DNA of 64,000 bases from Methanocella arvoryzae MRE50 (lineage in GTDB: Archaea; Halobacteriota; Methanocellia; Methanocellales; Methanocellaceae), in assembly GCF_000063445.1 (NCBI RefSeq), contig NC_009464.1, forward strand, positions 1,550,001 to 1,614,000. The letters are read 5' to 3'. Below the pieces are notes generated by a model that saw only the letters and a program-made list of their open reading frames with translations, had not been told where the DNA came from and made no database searches. Shown here in pieces: positions 25,674 through 32,542 of the stretch; the first letter of the stretch is position 1; every line of letters starts with the position of its first letter. Position numbers and translations under genes: made by a program.

Positions 25674-26739
25674 GGTGACCACCTATCCTCTGTAACATTG
25701 AGTCGAAGAACCAGTTCGTGTCCTGCGGCCCCGGGTTGGCTTCGGGGTGGTACTGGACGCTCCAGACCTTCAGCGCGTCGTTCTTCATACCTTCGACTGT
25801 GCCGTCGTTGGCGTTGACGTGGGTGATTTTGATGTCCCTGCCATCGATGCTCGCGGGGTCCACCGCGTAGCCGTGGTTCTGGCTGGTGATGTAGACCTTG
25901 CCGGTCTCGAGGTCGATGACCGGCTGGTTGGCGCCCCTGTGACCGAATTTTAACTTGTAGGTGCTGGCGCCGAGGGCCAGGGAGGCGATCTGGTGGCCGA
26001 GGCAGATGCCGAAAATCGGGAGCTGGCCGGCCAGCTTTTTTGCGACCGCTATGCCGTTGGTCGCGTTCTCCGGGTCGCCCGGCCCGTTGGAGAGCAGTAT
26101 GGCATCGGGCTGGTAGCCCATGACCTGTTCGGCGGACGTGGTGGCAGGTACTACGATGGTGTGGGCGCCCCTGTGGGCCAGGTTGTCGACGATGGACCGC
26201 TTCACGCCGAAGTCCATGACCACCACCCTCGGGCCGTTGCCCGGTATCTCGTAAGGCTGCCTGCAGGTGACCTGGTTGACGATGTCCTTCGGGAACTGCC
26301 ACTTTCTGGCCAGTTCGCAGGCCTTCTCCCCATCATCGCTACCCACGATCATGGCCGCGCGCATGGTGCCTGCCGTCCTGATCCGGATGGTCAGCATGCG
26401 GGTATCGACCTCGCATATGCCCGAGGCGTTCTCGTCGTCCAGGAACTGGCTCAGGTTACGGGTAGAAAGGTTATGAGAAGGATGATCGCAGCGCTCCCGG
26501 ATCACGAGGCCTTCGGCCTTGATGCCGGAAGACTGAAAACTGGCTTTATTAACGCCGTAATTGCCGATAAGAGGATATGTAAAAAGCAGTATCTGGCCTT
26601 TGTACGAAGGATCTGTAAGCGCTTCTTCGTAGCCCGTGGTTGGTGTAGCGAAGACCAGTTCGCCGCACGTCACGCCCTCTTTTCCGAAACCATCACCGAC
26701 CACATAAGTCCCGTCTTCCAGTCCTAATACTGCCTTCAT
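25666..26739 (-). CDS. carA: Carbamoyl-phosphate synthase small subunit (glutaminase)
   Basis: A 357-residue glutamine amidotransferase subunit that delivers ammonia to CarB. The N-terminal CPSase domain carries GYEEALTDPSYKGQILLFTY. The C-terminal class I amidotransferase has the nucleophile Cys in FGICLGHQIASLALGA, and the His and Glu partners in VQYHPEANPGP. It overlaps carB by eight bases. A TATA box (minus strand) near 26774-26784 gives a short leader. Confidence 0.97.
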   Translation of the reverse strand: MKAVLGLEDGTYVVGDGFGKEGVTCGELVFATPTTGYEEALTDPSYKGQILLFTYPLIGNYGVNKASFQSSGIKAEGLVIRERCDHPSHNLSTRNLSQFLDDENASGICEVDTRMLTIRIRTAGTMRAAMIVGSDDGEKACELARKWQFPKDIVNQVTCRQPYEIPGNGPRVVVMDFGVKRSIVDNLAHRGAHTIVVPATTSAEQVMGYQPDAILLSNGPGDPENATNGIAVAKKLAGQLPIFGICLGHQIASLALGASTYKLKFGHRGANQPVIDLETGKVYITSQNHGYAVDPASIDGRDIKITHVNANDGTVEGMKNDALKVWSVQYHPEANPGPQDTNWFFDSMLQRIGGHHA

Positions 26740-26773
26740 TGTAGTGTACCTGTGGTAGATACTAGCATTTTGG

Positions 26774-26784
26774 TTATATATTTT
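26774..26784 (-). promoter_or_regulatory. TATA box of the carAB operon
   Basis: AAAATATATAA on the minus strand lies about 40 bases before the carA ATG. A small inverted repeat (ATTCGC-ttc-GCGAAT, about 26787-26801) lies directly upstream and may bind a regulator. The rest of the gap to 27103 shows no gene I can support. Confidence 0.5.
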
Positions 26785-27103
26785 GCGATTCGCTTCGCGA
26801 ATATAAGAGCCGATTTTGAAATACGGCCGCCGACAGTCGAAATTTTAGGAAATGGCTTGCATAAAGTCGATTTAAGCTGATGCTGGACAGTTATACAGGG
26901 CCAGATAGATACATGGAACTGAAATACTGGACCGGACGCGTTTTAGAGCGTAAGTTTTCTTCCGCATACTGAAAAATAGGCTAAATTGCGTACTATTGAC
27001 GATAAGCGCGATAGTGTTGACTCAGATAGGAAATAGGGCCGAAGACTTGCGGTCGTTTGAAAAGACCCGAGCTTGATCAAGGAGTCGAGGATGAGACATG
27101 CGA

Positions 27104-27568
27104 TTATGTATCGCTCCGGGTAGCCGGCCTTTTTCGGAACATGTCGAATATTTTTGGCGCAAGACAAAGCAAAATCACCACATATCCAGGCAGGATGACA
27201 GTTTTACTATCTACAGGAACGTTAAGTATTCCCAGGAAGATTAATCCGATAAACCATATGATAATGCCCGATACGACTGGTATGAGATAACTGATGTCAC
27301 GTTTCAGCATCGCTGCCCGTTCAGTTCCTCTCAGATACAACATCATGAACGCAGTGTGACAAAGGATGGAGATCACCGCGATCATTCCAAAAGCAACCCA
27401 TAGCATCACTGCCCACAGGTTGATCGTATTAATGATAACAGGAGTTTTATCAGCATCACCATAAACGCTGATAGTCGCAATCAGGATGCTTATCAGCCAG
27501 AGATAGCATATGATTAATGCTACCAGCTGGCTTGCAATTTCTACCAATACCACTTTTATGTTAGCCAT
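27104..27568 (-). CDS. Four-helix membrane protein of unknown function
   Basis: A 154-residue protein with four clear hydrophobic helices: about residues 8-33, 50-75, 93-115 and 123-140, the last followed by a basic tail FRKRPATRSD. I recognise no family. It lies on the same strand as the small genes at 29433-30235, and before the IS element inserted it would have been their downstream neighbour. Base composition is lower in G+C than the core genes, as for that group. It may be part of the same accessory unit. Confidence 0.6.
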   Translation of the reverse strand: MANIKVVLVEIASQLVALIICYLWLISILIATISVYGDADKTPVIINTINLWAVMLWVAFGMIAVISILCHTAFMMLYLRGTERAAMLKRDISYLIPVVSGIIIWFIGLIFLGILNVPVDSKTVILPGYVVILLCLAPKIFDMFRKRPATRSDT

Positions 27569-27813
27569 TATTTACCACATCATTATCACAGTTGATCTGT
27601 CGAATAAAAATGTAAACCATGATACAATTAGTACCATGGTTTATTTTACTTATTATCTAATATGGATCACTAATACCGGCATTATTCCATTCAGTATATC
27701 CACAAATCCTGAAATAATCGGGGAAGAAGGAATATGTGAAGTACACCCATTGGAAAGCCCAGTGTTTTGCATAGAAGAACCAAATACAGTTCTGTTCATC
27801 GGTACATCCTGAG

Positions 27814-29479
27814 TTCCCGGTTTTTGGTAATATCCTGATTTTTTAATGTAGTTAGTGTATGCCGATCTATCTATCCGTAACCTTTATCATGTTATGTTAT
27901 CAATTGGTAACATGTGGAGAGTTTTGTGCAGGTGCGGAAACGGGGAGGGCAGGAGTACCTCTATGAAGTAACCCCGTATTATGATAAAGAGAAGAAACAG
28001 ATACGGCAGACGGTGAAATACCTGGGCAAGAATGTTGACGGTAAACCGGTGAAGGTCAGAGAGACAGCCAAAAAGCCTCGGAGGGCTCTAGGTTACGGGG
28101 AATTCCAACCACTCCTAAAGATCGTTGAGGAGCTGGGATTAAAAGAGATCCTGCAGGATGAACTCCCTGATAGGGATGTTAAAACCGCTCTGTTGTTAGC
28201 TTTTAACCGTGTCCTCAGGCCGGTCAGCATGAGGAACGTGGAATCATGGTACGAGGCATCTTATCTCTCGGAGCAATCCGAGTTCCGGGATCTCCAGACT
28301 ACGAGTCAACGGTTGAGCGAATTCCTGGAACGTATCGGTGAAAGCGACGCCTCTACAGGATTGTTCAAAGGTATGATCCAACGGTTTTCCACCGGTGCTT
28401 TGATCTACGATCTTACCAGTCTCAGCAGTTACTCTAAACTGATCAACATGTTGGAGTATGGGTATAACCGGGATGGATTGAGCACTGCACAGGTCAATCT
28501 CAGCATTGTTACAGATAAGGACTCGGGCATCCCCCTCATGTACGATGTTTACCCGGGTAGCATCGTCGATGTATCCACCCTGTTCAATACCGTCCGAAGG
28601 ATCAAGGATCTGGGAATCGCCAGGTATACCATGATTATTGACAGGGGTTTCTTTAGTAAAGATAATCTCCAACTGCTCTTTGATGAAAATGTAGTATTTG
28701 TCATTCCTGCCAGCACCACTCTGAAATCGGTTAAAGAAATGATCACCAGTTTGCATGATGATATCAAGGACCCGGACAACCTTCGGAAGTACCATGACAC
28801 GGTCATCTTCGTCAAACCGGTATCCATTGACGTTGACGGCCTCGTGGTGAAGGGCTATTATTATTACGACAGGAACCGGGAGAATCTGGATACCAACCTG
28901 TTTTACAAACGATTGTATAATGTCGTGGACGAACTGAAAAACAGGCATATCAAAAATCCATATGATACTGAACGGATCGTGCGCAGTATCGCGGGCAAAC
29001 TGTACAATTACATCGAAGTTCAACGAAACATCGATTCCAGCCTCACCGTCACGATCAAGAAGAACGCGGTGAGTCAGCGGATCAACCGGATGGGCAGGTA
29101 CATCCTCTGCTATCACGGGGAGATGACCTGGGAAGAATGCCTCCGCACATACAAGGAACGGGATCAGGTCGAGAAACGATTCCACCACTTGAAGAACGAT
29201 CTTGATGCTGTGCCTTTGAATGTGAGAAAAGAATCTACGATGAAAGGATTCCTATTCATCTGCTTCCTCGCCTTGATATTGAGAATGCGCCTTCAGAAAC
29301 ACCTCGAAGAAACCCGACTCGATAAAAAGTATTGCGTCGAGGACCTGATCCTGGAACTCGAAAAAATACACATGATCAAACTCGAGGACGGAGACTGGCT
29401 ACTGTCAGAACTGACCAAGAAACAGAAAGACATCATCGAACGCATGAGCCTTGAATCATGTTACCAAAAAACCGGGAAG
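27814..29479 (+). mobile_element. IS1634-like insertion sequence with terminal inverted repeats and a 4-bp target duplication
   Basis: The left end TTCCCGGTTTTTGGTAA (27814-27830) matches the inverse of the right end, TTACCAAAAAACCGGGAA (29461-29478), with a single extra A. TGAG flanks both ends (27810-27813 and 29480-29483) as a direct repeat, with the element then ending at G 29479. A shorter definition would end at 29478 with a 4-of-5 match. The element holds one transposase gene and interrupts the 3' end of a minus-strand lipoprotein gene. Confidence 0.85.
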
Positions 29480-29482
29480 TGA
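27914..29482 (+). CDS. IS1634-family transposase (IS4-like DDE)
   Basis: A 522-residue transposase that appears full length and intact. The N-terminal part (YLYEVTPYYDKEKKQIRQTV, then KYLGKNVDGKPV) is typical of the IS1634 group. DDE residues are likely Asp in LIYDLTSLSS, Asp in MIIDRGFFS and Glu in KERDQVEKRFHHLK, with the usual beta-rich insert before the Glu. The reading frame runs through the right terminal repeat, and its TGA stop (29480-29482) lies in the flanking target copy, not in the element. A new insertion elsewhere would need another stop supplied by its target. Confidence 0.93.
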   Translation: MESFVQVRKRGGQEYLYEVTPYYDKEKKQIRQTVKYLGKNVDGKPVKVRETAKKPRRALGYGEFQPLLKIVEELGLKEILQDELPDRDVKTALLLAFNRVLRPVSMRNVESWYEASYLSEQSEFRDLQTTSQRLSEFLERIGESDASTGLFKGMIQRFSTGALIYDLTSLSSYSKLINMLEYGYNRDGLSTAQVNLSIVTDKDSGIPLMYDVYPGSIVDVSTLFNTVRRIKDLGIARYTMIIDRGFFSKDNLQLLFDENVVFVIPASTTLKSVKEMITSLHDDIKDPDNLRKYHDTVIFVKPVSIDVDGLVVKGYYYYDRNRENLDTNLFYKRLYNVVDELKNRHIKNPYDTERIVRSIAGKLYNYIEVQRNIDSSLTVTIKKNAVSQRINRMGRYILCYHGEMTWEECLRTYKERDQVEKRFHHLKNDLDAVPLNVRKESTMKGFLFICFLALILRMRLQKHLEETRLDKKYCVEDLILELEKIHMIKLEDGDWLLSELTKKQKDIIERMSLESCYQKTGK

Positions 29483-29729
29483 GGTTATTATCAATAGGTG
29501 TAACGGTGGTTTTTGTTATATATGAATTGTTTTCATTATTTGTCACAGAAAAAGTTATTTGTGTTTGCATTATGTTATTTTTGGTCAGATCAACGTATTC
29601 TGAATGGTAGATATATTCACCGTCATTTAAGTTATATTCTTGACCATCCATGGCGATTTGTGCTGCAATGCACCCACATATAAGGATAGTTAATAATATC
29701 CCGATCAGTATCGTAATTTTATAGTTCAC
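29433..29729 (-). CDS. Small lipoprotein, 3' end replaced by the IS element
   Basis: A signal peptide with lipobox LICGC near residue 20 starts this protein. The mature part is rich in Asn, Thr and Tyr and has several N-glycosylation sequons; no family is recognised. The frame enters the IS right end after residue 83, so the last 15 residues (TSRFFGNMIQGSCVR) are IS-coded. Joining the flanks without the element would end the protein after only four further residues. The mature domain is therefore nearly complete and may still work. It overlaps the upstream membrane-protein gene by four bases. Confidence 0.6.
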   Translation of the reverse strand: MNYKITILIGILLTILICGCIAAQIAMDGQEYNLNDGEYIYHSEYVDLTKNNIMQTQITFSVTNNENNSYITKTTVTPIDNNLTSRFFGNMIQGSCVR

Positions 29730-30061
29730 TTATGATTCCCCCTATAGATCCTTATAATCATTAATACGATTACGATTAATATGCTAAATATTAATATTGA
29801 TAATAGTGAGTCTTCAACGTTAGTTGACCTAGATATGCCAATATAAAATGAAATTAATATGCACATTAATCCTAAAAATAATAAGGATTTATTAATAAGT
29901 TTATTTTTGATTTGCATGGGATTTTTAATGTGTATTAAAATTATTATATATCCAATTGATGCAAATAATATATATAAATTATAAAATATAATACTATACA
30001 TAAATAAAATAAGTAATATAACAAATATAAAATAATAAAAAATTTTAAAAGTTTTACTCAT
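29726..30061 (-). CDS. AT-rich four-helix membrane protein
   Basis: A 111-residue protein, almost all hydrophobic, with four predicted helices and a basic loop in the middle (KNPMQIKNKLINKS). The coding DNA is extremely AT-rich, using mostly ATA, AAT and TTA codons. That differs strongly from the G+C-rich core genes and suggests transfer or low selection. It is coupled to the lipoprotein gene by a four-base overlap and follows a 47-codon Cys-rich gene by 30 bases. Small four-helix proteins beside small secreted peptides can be immunity or export factors; this is inference only. Confidence 0.6.
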   Translation of the reverse strand: MSKTFKIFYYFIFVILLILFMYSIIFYNLYILFASIGYIIILIHIKNPMQIKNKLINKSLLFLGLMCILISFYIGISRSTNVEDSLLSILIFSILIVIVLMIIRIYRGNHK

Positions 30062-30091
30062 ATTATTCCTCGATTTATATTCATTGAGTAT

Positions 30092-30235
30092 TTACCCACA
30101 ATCATGGCTATCGTACTGATCACATCCCCACTGATTGCCAGTACTGCATAGGTAATCTGAACATGTACATCCAGCTATCCAACCAGATGCTCCAAATCCG
30201 AATACAAGCGCTACGCAAAGGCGCTGTAGCCTCAT
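30092..30235 (-). CDS. 47-residue Cys-rich lipopeptide-like protein
   Basis: On the minus strand ATG 30235 opens a frame that ends at TAA 30092-30094. Residues 1-22 resemble an export signal: MRLQRL, a hydrophobic stretch, then the lipobox WIAGC, making Cys23 the likely lipidated residue. The mature part is only 25 residues, with five Cys in CTCSDYLCSTGNQWGCDQ and HDCG. Such a short Cys-rich mature chain suggests a peptide held by disulfides, an Fe-S site or a metal site. A TATA box and a doubled AAGTACTT site lie upstream. It is first in a minus-strand set with the 111-residue membrane protein and the lipoprotein. Confidence 0.5.
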   Translation of the reverse strand: MRLQRLCVALVFGFGASGWIAGCTCSDYLCSTGNQWGCDQYDSHDCG

Positions 30236-30262
30236 GAATATCAGATCAGATGCTTGCAAGAA

Positions 30263-30291
30263 AAGTACTTAGATTTCAAGTACTTATATTT
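30263..30291 (-). promoter_or_regulatory. Promoter of the AT-rich operon with two AAGTACTT boxes
   Basis: The palindromic octamer AAGTACTT occurs at 30263-30270 and 30278-30285, 15 bp apart. The second overlaps a minus-strand TATA box (AAATATAAGTA). This fits an operator that would block transcription of the 47-residue gene. The FilR1-like regulator encoded just upstream is a candidate ligand. The remaining gap to 30454 shows no other gene. Confidence 0.45.
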
Positions 30292-30454
30292 ATCACATCA
30301 TAATTTTTGCGAAAAAAATACTCGCTTATTAATGCATTATAAACAATTATGATACGAGTATAATATCATGTAACATTAGAGCCGCCATGATAATACGTTA
30401 TTATTCAAGTGCATGAAGCCGTTGAAGATAATTCAAATAAAAAGAGCTTATTCA

Positions 30455-31234
30455 TCAGGGATTTCTTATCTCCCGCGACTTTTGTCGGTAATGCTCGAAA
30501 AGCTCCTCTCCCCACCTTATCGCCGGCGGCCCGAAGCTCATCAGGCTGGTCGAGACATCGAAAGCTCCGTTTTTACACAGGGACAGGGTCGTGAAGGTGT
30601 CCGTGACGGCAAACGCCAGCCGTGCGTCATCCGTCACATACAGCCGAGCATTATCATGCTCTAAATATGCTTCGAGTGCATCGGCATACTCCTTCTCCAG
30701 TACCTCGAAAATGTTCTCGGTAACAATAACTGAAACGGGTACTTTTCTGCCTGCCATCGATAAAACGAGCTCTGGATAACGCGAGTCAAAAACCGAAGAG
30801 ATGACTGAGATCTTTTCCGACTTTGACAGCTTATCAACTACCTCGCTGAAGGTTGCCGTTATGTTCTCCAAACTATTCTCAATCAGCGTGCAGTCACCCA
30901 GATCCTCGATCCTGTGTAGCAAGCTCTCAGGTACCGGGGATAAGTCGTGCTCGTTTAAAAACTGCTCGTTTTTCCCGATAAGCCTCGCAAGAGCATCTAG
31001 CCTACGCAGATTTTTCGCCAGGATCGATCCGGTAGAGGTTAAGCGGAACTTACCATCATTCTTGATAACCAGATTATTACTTTTAAGCTTGTTAAGCTGC
31101 GGAATCAGGTTCGAAGGCCTCACGTTTAAATATTCTTCCAGCTCTGTCAACGCTGATGGCCTTTCCAGCAACTGAAGCACAAGATTTTTTCTCACTTCAG
31201 AGTTAAGGACTAATTTTTGCAAGCATTCGGACAT
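30455..31234 (-). CDS. FilR1-type winged-helix transcriptional regulator
   Basis: A 259-residue protein. Residues 8-75 form a winged helix (VRKNLVLQLLERPSALTELE, then NLIPQLNKLKSNNLVIK). The rest resembles the FilR1 middle domain (former DUF1724), common in methanogens, for example SKSEKISVISSVFDSRYPEL and VSVIVTENIFEVLEKEY. In Methanothrix, FilR1 takes part in filament and methanogenesis control; the ligand and targets here are unknown. It lies on the same strand and just upstream of the AT-rich peptide operon, but its own composition is closer to the core genome. Confidence 0.8.
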   Translation of the reverse strand: MSECLQKLVLNSEVRKNLVLQLLERPSALTELEEYLNVRPSNLIPQLNKLKSNNLVIKNDGKFRLTSTGSILAKNLRRLDALARLIGKNEQFLNEHDLSPVPESLLHRIEDLGDCTLIENSLENITATFSEVVDKLSKSEKISVISSVFDSRYPELVLSMAGRKVPVSVIVTENIFEVLEKEYADALEAYLEHDNARLYVTDDARLAFAVTDTFTTLSLCKNGAFDVSTSLMSFGPPAIRWGEELFEHYRQKSREIRNP

Positions 31235-31618
31235 AATTATCTACCAGCCTCACCTTTTTCCACAGAAAGAATTTACTTCAATGGCCTACCGGGTTATTTA
31301 CAATTATTTGTATAACAAGCAGTTGTTTATAAATTATGGTCAATCTGGTAAAATTTATAAAAAGCGATTCCGCATATGCCGATCTCTCCTGTAAACAGCT
31401 TAAGGATACGGTGAAGAAGGGCCGTAAAAACTGGCGATTTCCCGCCATGTTCCGTTTTAGTCCCCGGAATCGTAGATCAAGTTTTAAATGCCCGCGCAGT
31501 AAAACTTATTAGTGAAAATAACTGCCATAATAGCCAGTCGCTTAGGCTACAAACGATTAATATATTCGACCTTCATAGATAGACATATCAGTGAAACGAA
31601 CCCACGGAGAATAATCCT

Positions 31619-32542
31619 ATGACGTTTGCTACTTTAAAGGAAGTGCTGGACACGGCCAAGGCCGGCAAGTACGGTGTTGGCGCTTTTAATATTAACAACA
31701 TGGAGATCGCCAAGGCGATCGGTAACGCGGCCAAAGAAGAGAAGTCGCCGGTAATTCTGGCAGTATCTCCGAGTGCCATCAAATACGCGGGCATCGAGTA
31801 CATCTACGAGATCGCCAGGGTCACCGCCGTGAAGTCCAAAGTGCCCACAGTGCTCCATTTAGACCACGGCACCGAGTTCAAGGACTGCGTCCAGTGCATC
31901 AGGCACGGCTGGTCCTCCGTCATGTACGACGGCTCAAAGCTGCCCTTCCAGGAAAATATTGCGATGACGAAGAAGATCGTCGAGTTCGCCCACGCAGCCG
32001 GCGTCTCCGTCGAGGCCGAGCTGGGCAAGCTGGCCGGAGTCGAGGGCCACGTCTCGGTATCGGAGAAGGATGCCATTTTTACCAACCCTGAAGAGGCCAA
32101 GATCTTCGTCGAGCAGACCGGCGTGGACGCTCTCGCAGTAGCCATCGGCACGTCCCACGGAGCATTCAAGTTTAAGGGCGAAGCCAACCTCGACTTCGAG
32201 CGGCTGCAGAAGATCGAGAAGCTGGTCGGCATCCCCATAGTGCTCCACGGCGCATCGGGCGTCCCCAAGGAAGTGCTGGAGAAGGCAGCGAAGTATGGGG
32301 CCAAGCTTCCGGGAGCCGCAGGCGTCCCGAACGACGCCATCCAGAAGGCCATCAGCCTCGGCGTGGCCAAGATCAACATCGACACCGACATCAGGCTCAC
32401 CATGACCGCGGCCATCAGGCAGGTGCTCACTGAGCACCCGGAGGAGTTCGACCCCAGGAAGATCTTCGGCCCCGCGGAAGAGGCGATGAAAGAAGTGGCG
32501 AAGGGCAAGATGAGGCTCTTCGGCAGCTCCGGAAAAGCCTGA
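31619..32542 (+). CDS. fba: Class II fructose-1,6-bisphosphate aldolase
   Basis: A 307-residue zinc-dependent aldolase that interconverts fructose 1,6-bisphosphate with two triose phosphates. Metal-binding and catalytic motifs are in place: VLHLDHGTEFKDCVQCI (residues 80-96), EAELGKLAGVEGH and LHGASGVPKEV, then KINIDTDIRL binding the phosphate. Most archaea use class I or bifunctional FBP enzymes instead, so a bacterial class II type suggests ancient transfer. It is followed after 16 bases by a PPi-type phosphofructokinase gene, which would supply its substrate; the two form an operon. Confidence 0.93.
   Translation: MTFATLKEVLDTAKAGKYGVGAFNINNMEIAKAIGNAAKEEKSPVILAVSPSAIKYAGIEYIYEIARVTAVKSKVPTVLHLDHGTEFKDCVQCIRHGWSSVMYDGSKLPFQENIAMTKKIVEFAHAAGVSVEAELGKLAGVEGHVSVSEKDAIFTNPEEAKIFVEQTGVDALAVAIGTSHGAFKFKGEANLDFERLQKIEKLVGIPIVLHGASGVPKEVLEKAAKYGAKLPGAAGVPNDAIQKAISLGVAKINIDTDIRLTMTAAIRQVLTEHPEEFDPRKIFGPAEEAMKEVAKGKMRLFGSSGKA

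What the first reader, a model, noticed from the sequence alone, without database searches (positions are those of the whole stretch)
29433..30291. AT-rich mini-operon with an unlisted 47-residue Cys-rich lipopeptide
Three minus-strand genes sit behind a promoter with two palindromic AAGTACTT boxes: a 47-codon gene with a lipobox and five Cys in a 25-residue mature part, a 111-residue four-helix membrane protein and a small lipoprotein. Their base use is far more AT-rich than the core genes. The layout of small exported peptide, small membrane protein and lipoprotein recalls peptide toxin-immunity or signalling units, but no family is recognised. The gene is too short for usual annotation and may be missed elsewhere.
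Basis: partly seen in the sequence, partly recalled or inferred. Interest (0 to 1): 0.72.

Follow-up and report, generated by a model that had tools for sequence, protein, structure and literature searches.

The report
Decayed archaeal bacteriocin gene cluster remnant
The tiny cysteine-rich gene and its two neighbours are most likely the broken remains of a peptide-toxin and self-protection gene set that other methane-producing archaea carry intact, cut down here by gene loss and a jumping gene.

Summary
The three frames exist but are not three intact genes. The 47-residue peptide matches the cysteine-rich C-terminal core (CxC-DY-C-GNQW-CD) of ~200-225-residue exported precursors in Methanosarcinaceae and other archaea. 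These precede a small membrane protein, a ~270-290-residue lipoprotein and often a thioredoxin/DsbD-like protein. Longer precursors sharing their leader match NCBIfam halocin_C8_dom. The peptide and the adjacent lipoprotein frame each match profiles built without the window (E 3.4e-6, 5.4e-6), above all of 2000 shuffles. The window copy is damaged: about four fifths of the precursor is gone; the lipoprotein is cut after ~81 residues by an IS1634 element that supplies its last ~17; no ccdA-like gene was found. Only the membrane gene is whole, and it is assigned by position, not by profile. The 'lipobox' cysteine is a conserved core cysteine. The cluster sits in a 4.9-kb island between carA and fba, absent from three of three relatives. 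The toxin-immunity hunch fits the ancestry; an active lipopeptide is unlikely. New lead: Rfam sRNA162 lies antisense just upstream of the precursor in 5 of 10 related loci, suggesting that its cis target MM2442, 'unknown function', is such a precursor.

The parts
30092..30235 (-). 47-codon frame; relic of the last ~40 residues (Cys-rich core) of a ~210-aa exported bacteriocin-type precursor
   Evidence: Matches to L003, L051, L056, L059; precursor profile built without the window E 3.4e-6 for the 55-codon form, 22.4 bits for the 47 residues, 0 of 2000 shuffles as high
29726..30061 (-). 111-aa membrane protein with four hydrophobic segments; candidate immunity protein; the only whole gene of the cassette
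   Evidence: Position between peptide and lipoprotein as in relatives; longer than chance; no significant profile match (0.8 bits, 27 of 2000 shuffles as high); pairwise 0 of 500 shuffles reach its score with L051
29433..29729 (-). 98-codon lipoprotein frame: about 81 native residues, then about 17 residues read from the IS end; truncated relative of a ~270-290-aa lipoprotein
   Evidence: Lipoprotein profile built without the window E 5.4e-6; first 79 residues alone 19.9 bits, 0 of 2000 shuffles as high; IS boundary
27808..29484 (+). IS1634-family insertion element (transposase 27914-29482) that cuts the lipoprotein gene
   Evidence: NF033559 E 6.4e-85; terminal inverted repeats; second copy 98.6% identical elsewhere with other flanks
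30263..30285 (.). Two AAGTACTT palindromes 15 bp apart upstream of the peptide frame; possible operator, no counterpart in nine related upstream regions
30455..31234 (-). ArsR-type regulator with FilR1_middle domain, next to the cassette
   Evidence: PF08350 E 1.6e-33; FilR1-type regulators also flank the L051 cassette
26740..31618 (.). Lineage-specific island between carA and fba that holds the cassette relic, the IS, the regulator and a 154-aa membrane protein
   Evidence: carA and fba are 602, 245 and 505 bp apart in three of three relatives, without these genes

Best explanation
The locus is a laterally acquired, partly decayed bacteriocin-type cassette related to the halocin C8 precursors. 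In its intact form in relatives (mechanism inferred) a ~210-aa precursor is exported by its signal peptide, its C-terminal Cys-rich core is folded with disulfides, probably helped by the linked thioredoxin/DsbD-like protein, and is cut off to act on related cells; the small membrane protein and the lipoprotein next to it would protect the producer. In this genome the precursor gene has lost its start, signal peptide and pro-region and only the last ~40 residues survive as the 47-codon frame; an IS1634 insertion, probably with an adjacent deletion, cut the lipoprotein to about 81 native residues; no ccdA-like gene was found in the window. Only the membrane (candidate immunity) gene is whole, so the locus would make no active bacteriocin and at most gives leftover immunity. 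Shown: similarity of peptide and lipoprotein to the family, gene order in relatives, IS boundary, empty sites in relatives. Inferred: toxin activity, immunity role, lateral origin, lack of function of the 47-residue product.
For: Peptide and lipoprotein each match profiles built without the window (E 3.4e-6 and 5.4e-6), with 0 of 2000 shuffles as high, and are the only window frames that hit these profiles at E <= 0.5. The lipoprotein was never used to find the loci, so its match is independent. Same gene order in relatives; all 11 of 392 genomes with the lipoprotein profile are among the 23 of 392 with the precursor profile. IS boundary. No leader upstream in six frames, no lipoprotein continuation left of the IS. 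Empty carA-fba sites in three of three relatives. Intact precursors nearly all have GAGG to GAGGTGAT before the start, the 47-codon ATG only TGATC.
Against: The membrane protein does not match the family profile (0.8 bits; 27 of 2000 shuffles as high), so its membership rests on position and topology. The relatives were found through the peptide's own motif, so the peptide match alone is partly circular. The 47-codon frame is still open and keeps six of eight core Cys and the DY-C-GNQW-CD motif, more than old neutral decay would suggest. The palindrome pair has no counterpart upstream of nine related genes. A FilR1-type regulator was not found by similarity in six other 17-18-kb family loci (L056-L061).
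Confidence: 0.72

Rival explanations
1. Functional mini-gene: the truncation created, or selection kept, a short stand-alone peptide with its own signal-like segment and lipobox, expressed from the palindrome-bearing promoter and active as a toxin, decoy or signal together with the membrane protein.
For: Frame still open with six of eight core Cys and the Trp motif; one hydrophobic segment at residues 6-24; unique palindrome pair about 30-50 bp before the ATG; membrane gene whole.
Against: The signal-like segment and lipobox Cys are explained by alignment to the core; only TGATC, no GGAGG-type site, before the ATG; ORF length within chance; lipoprotein cut and ccdA-like gene missing; no stand-alone short form seen in relatives other than decayed copies.
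Confidence: 0.15
2. Intact-but-orphan immunity: the membrane gene is kept by selection to protect against bacteriocins of neighbouring methanogens, while the peptide and lipoprotein are dead. This is a stronger form of the best explanation.
For: 111-codon frame whole at 19% GC (0 of 1000 shuffles); GAGG before its start; L060 and L069 also keep a whole membrane gene beside a broken precursor.
Against: Few cases; L067's membrane frame is itself broken and L057/L003 has none; no dN/dS possible without close relatives; recent decay would look the same.
Confidence: 0.35
3. Chance resemblance: a short Cys-rich frame matches Cys-rich protein ends by composition only.
For: Short Cys-rich queries give spurious hits: four of the seven genomes matching (G211, G151, G033, G352) were judged chance, and G211 had a better E-value (3.0e-4) than the two kept (0.00108 and 0.0108).
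Against: Ordered CxC-DY-C-GNQW-CD motif and 0 of 2000 composition-preserving shuffles as high; an independent lipoprotein match two genes away in the family's order.
Confidence: 0.04

Closest known systems
Halocin C8 precursor family (NCBIfam TIGR04449 halocin_C8_dom)
   Same: Exported precursor with a Cys-rich C-terminal domain; longer precursors at the same loci that share signal peptide and pro-region with the relatives of this peptide match TIGR04449 (E 8.1e-11, 5.6e-5, 1.2e-4; profile overlap). C-terminal release is known for halocin C8 (passages of PMC12893001 and PMC11509114).
   Different: The NQW-type core itself does not hit TIGR04449. For halocin C8 one gene is reported to give both toxin and immunity (passages); here separate membrane and lipoprotein genes follow. 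The window copy lacks the leader.
M. mazei MM2442 / sRNA162 locus (PMC3510493, abstract and passages seen)
   Same: Rfam RF02792 sRNA162 lies antisense 74-76 nt before the precursor start in four related loci and before a relic in a fifth; an ArsR-type regulator is nearby in M. mazei, as in the window.
   Different: MM2442's sequence was not seen; no sRNA162 match in window 26700-31700.
Lantibiotic immunity lipoproteins (LanI type; recalled)
   Same: A lipoprotein gene beside a peptide bacteriocin gene.
   Different: Analogy only; L051's lipoprotein is nearest to PF21347 DUF3108_like (E 1.3e-5, just below cutoff).
IS1634 family insertion sequences
   Same: Transposase NF033559 E 6.4e-85, terminal inverted repeats, two copies in the genome.
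   Different: No visible target duplication at the window copy.

Membership tests
NQW-type precursor cassette (defined in this work) | C-terminal core motif CxC-x-D-Y-x-C-x2-G-N/S-Q-W-x-C-D | tested here: met
   two of eight core Cys of L051 are lost and four residues are inserted before the last Cys
NQW-type precursor cassette (defined in this work) | Signal peptide and pro-region before the core | tested here: not met
   No leader in six frames of 30081-30460; no precursor-profile match for G000 at E <= 1e-4
NQW-type precursor cassette (defined in this work) | Small membrane protein gene directly downstream | tested here: inconclusive
   Present by position and topology; profile match not significant, pairwise match to L051 above 500 of 500 shuffles
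NQW-type precursor cassette (defined in this work) | Lipoprotein gene after the membrane gene | tested here: met
   Profile E 5.4e-6, but only about 81 of ~270-290 residues remain
NQW-type precursor cassette (defined in this work) | Linked thioredoxin/DsbD-like gene (present in several, not all, loci) | tested here: not met
   Best window frame E 0.45, a different membrane protein
Halocin C8 (TIGR04449) | Match to halocin_C8_dom | tested here: not met
   No match for the window peptide at E <= 1; only longer paralogs in relatives match
Bacteriocin (function) | Antimicrobial activity with specific self-immunity | not testable with these tools
   Needs expression and growth-inhibition assays
Lipoprotein (for the 47-residue peptide) | Signal peptide with lipobox Cys | tested here: inconclusive
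   Pattern present by eye and one hydrophobic segment, but the Cys is a core Cys conserved in non-lipoprotein relatives; no signal predictor was available
IS1634 insertion sequence | Transposase family and terminal inverted repeats | tested here: met

The most novel reading that the evidence does not exclude
Methanogens and relatives carry a polymorphic peptide-warfare system: one exported leader with interchangeable disulfide-rich C-terminal cores (halocin-C8-like, NQW-type and others), paired with fast-diverging membrane and lipoprotein immunity genes and controlled by ArsR/FilR1-type regulators and, in Methanosarcina, by antisense sRNA162. In this genome the weapon is gone but the immunity membrane protein is kept by selection against neighbours' bacteriocins.
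Probability: 0.35. Interest if true: 0.68.

Novelty: new variant of a known kind. Interest (0 to 1): 0.5.

Why it matters
It turns an unlabelled small ORF into a fossil of archaeal antagonism and points to a Cys-rich bacteriocin-type cassette whose precursors gave no match at curated cutoff in Pfam or NCBIfam and which is spread patchily (precursor profile in 23 of 392 genomes of the phylum). [quoted passage not shown] If that holds, sRNA162 links control of methylamine use to an antimicrobial peptide. The family may already be listed in a 2019 survey that I recall but could not read, so no claim of first description is made.

Tried and rejected
Family scans of the window proteins in Pfam, NCBIfam, PHROGs and PADLOC gave nothing at a curated cutoff for the three frames (weak PHROG hits at E 0.04 and 0.13). 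Rfam on 26700-31700: no match at E <= 1. Viral contigs: no relative of the 111-aa protein or of the L051 precursor and no core pattern. Plasmid and phage records: no match to the L051 precursor at E <= 1e-3. Searches of 60 relatives with the 111-aa protein and with 80 lipoprotein residues gave only weak hits besides the window genome (best E 0.0097 and 0.032); these were not pursued.

Core DNA pattern in genome contigs: 5 loci, only L051 accepted; L052, L054 and L055 were inspected and no ORF listed carries the motif; L053 was not inspected; 7 of 392 genomes at E <= 0.02; besides the window genome only G235 (L039) and G017 (L003) were kept, by motif and context, not by rank; G211, G151, G033 and G352 were dropped (stops inside, or no motif); 10 of 392 at E <= 0.01; G014, G166 and G315 dropped, G161 and G329 kept as partial or relic copies.

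Lipoprotein remainder or ccdA relic left of the IS: not found. Palindrome pair upstream of nine related genes: none. A consensus fold of nine leaders shows one 11-pair helix with 6 pairs changed on both sides; a further 5' stem seen by eye was not predicted, and the window has no counterpart. The recalled 2019 mBio survey of archaeal antimicrobial peptides is not held. Literature searches on halocin C8 relatives, archaeal bacteriocins and sRNA162.
Full report
What is in the window. The genome is one contig of 3,179,916 bases, the size I recall for Methanocella arvoryzae MRE50; no tool named it. The three minus-strand frames exist as described. The transposase at 27914-29482 is IS1634 family (NF033559, E 6.4e-85). 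A 98.6% identical copy lies at C1:1495493-1497177. The inverted repeats put the IS ends at 27808 and 29484; the block shared by both copies is 27806-29487, so the end is certain to about three bases. The 98-codon 'lipoprotein' therefore has about 81 native residues and about 17 read from the IS end. Copy 2 seems to have a 5-base target duplication (my reading); the window copy shows none, and no lipoprotein continuation was found left of it. An adjacent deletion is the simplest reading.

What the peptide is. Of 392 genomes of the phylum searched with the 47 residues, 7 match at E <= 0.02. Besides the window genome I kept two by motif and context, although a dropped hit (G211, E 3.0e-4) ranked above them. 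In L039 the motif ends a 214-aa exported protein; in L003 it ends a decayed gene. The L003 match is ungapped over 34 residues with 16 identities; beyond it the window has four extra residues before the last Cys. A profile of the three ends found 10 of 392 genomes at E <= 0.01, of which three were dropped. Among the new ones, L044 and L045 carry the motif at the end of a precursor, followed by a 97- or 125-aa membrane protein and a 269- or 281-aa lipoprotein. A DNA pattern for the core found one named locus, L051, a Methanosarcinaceae archaeon: 212-aa precursor, 122-aa membrane protein, 292-aa lipoprotein, 324-aa thioredoxin/DsbD-like protein, and FilR1-type regulators on both sides.

Tests. 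Profiles of precursors, membrane proteins and lipoproteins were built without the window. The 55-codon form of the window frame hits the precursor profile at E 3.4e-6 and the 98-codon frame hits the lipoprotein profile at E 5.4e-6. Against 2000 shuffles each: 47 residues 22.4 bits, best shuffle 10.0; lipoprotein 22.0 versus 11.9; its first 79 residues alone 19.9 versus 10.8. Among all stop-to-stop window frames of 20 residues or more, only these two hit the two profiles at E <= 0.5. Because the loci were found through the peptide's own motif, the peptide score is partly circular; the lipoprotein score is not. The membrane protein fails its profile test: 0.8 bits, 27 of 2000 shuffles as high. 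Pairwise, 0 of 500 shuffles reach its score with L051 and 3 of 500 with L060, but 15, 42, 66 and 210 of 500 with L059, L068, L070 and L071. I count it by position and topology. By the same crude measure relatives have three or four hydrophobic segments. The membrane proteins of L070 and L071 are not significant hits to the profile either and L068 is weak (E 0.0035), so this gene diverges fast.

Linkage. 13 of 111 genomes of the family of G235 have a precursor match at E <= 0.001. A profile of eight precursors matches 23 of 392 phylum genomes at E <= 1e-4, the lipoprotein profile 11 of 392 at E <= 1e-5. All 11 are among the 23 (about 0.6 expected by chance), and in each the two matches lie within about 2.4 kb of each other. 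The window genome is in neither list, its copies being fragments.

Relation to halocin C8. Longer precursors at L056 and L061 share signal peptide and pro-region with the short ones and match TIGR04449 halocin_C8_dom: L056:15487-16290 E 8.1e-11, above cutoff; L061:13911-14648 E 5.6e-5, at cutoff; L061:4375-5127 E 1.2e-4, just below. The NQW-type proteins scanned do not (L039 and L003, L059, window). What is shared is the leader; the cores differ. Halocin C8 is released from the C-terminus of its precursor (passages of PMC12893001 and PMC11509114).

State of the window copy. (a) The frame starts inside the core and no leader is found upstream in six frames. (b) Six of the eight core cysteines of L051 are kept. 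(c) Before the 47-codon ATG there is only TGATC; before the membrane gene GAGG; before nine of ten precursors compared GAGG to GAGGTGAT, and before L059 AGGTGA only at an internal start (the anti-SD sequence used is recalled). By run length TGATC (5) is not shorter than GAGG (4), so this is suggestive only. (d) The lipoprotein is cut. (e) No ccdA-like gene in the window. (f) The membrane gene is whole: 0 of 1000 shuffles of its interval reach 111 codons, while 428 of 1000 reach 47 in the peptide's interval.

Other decayed copies. L058: precursor split over two frames, possibly a sequencing error. L060: about 20 precursor residues beside a whole 117-aa membrane gene and a short ccdA-like piece. 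L069: precursor with two stops. L057/L003: pro-region missing and no membrane gene downstream. L067: membrane frame itself broken. Precursors complete to the NQW motif: L051, L056, L059, L068. Loss of the toxin with the membrane gene kept is thus seen elsewhere, but in few cases.

Origin. carA and fba are divergent neighbours 602, 245 and 505 bp apart in three of three relatives of the family, with no tblastn match (E <= 1e-3) to the island proteins in the stretches fetched; in the window 4,879 bp separate them. Among the four genomes held the island is specific to this lineage.

Regulation. A FilR1-type regulator stands next to the cassette in the window and in L051. In six other 17-18-kb family loci (L056-L061) no similar regulator was found. 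The palindrome pair is unique in the genome and absent upstream of nine related genes.

Link to a studied locus. Rfam sRNA162 (RF02792) exceeds its gathering score in 5 of 11 sources scanned, which are 10 distinct places (L051 and L064 are one): L065, L066, L067, L068 and L076. It lies on the strand opposite to the precursor, its 5' end 74-76 nt from the TTG start in L065-L068; in L076 it precedes a relic. In M. [quoted passage not shown] 184 minus 65 puts the sRNA end 119 nt from the annotated start, though the same passage also says 150 nt; in L065-L067 the distance to the internal Met15 is 117-118 nt. I infer that MM2442 is a precursor of this family and that its true start may be an upstream TTG with a strong site. 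Its sequence was not seen.

Verdict. The toxin-immunity idea is probably right about its ancestry. The wider value lies in the cassette family and the sRNA162 link.

Noticed in passing
L065:2216-2416, L066:1228-1416, L067:1221-1410, L068:1232-1405, L076:1209-1399: Rfam sRNA162 (RF02792) lies antisense just upstream of bacteriocin-type precursor genes; MM2442 of M. mazei is probably such a precursor, and its start may be mis-called.
   Followed up: partly
Leaders upstream of precursors in L051, L056, L061, L067, L068, L070, L071, L083, L100: A conserved element pairing GGCAAG with CTTGCC before the start: 11 predicted pairs, 6 of them with changes on both sides in at least one sequence. It overlaps or adjoins the sRNA162 region in some loci; function unknown.
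   Followed up: partly
L056:15487-16290, L061:4375-5127, L061:13911-14648, L083-L106: Many further precursors with the same leader and different Cys-rich ends, suggesting a polymorphic bacteriocin superfamily; at L061 each long precursor is followed by a ~100-aa membrane protein and a ~330-340-aa protein, the one scanned being LolA-like.
   Followed up: partly
window 27104-27568: 154-aa membrane protein left of the IS, within the island; no family match at curated cutoff and no match in the carA-fba region of three relatives.
   Followed up: no
G000:C1:2292080-2294714 (L062): Two further FilR1-type regulators 43-46% identical to the window's, flanking a 228-aa frame; no cassette recognised there by the profiles used.
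   Followed up: no
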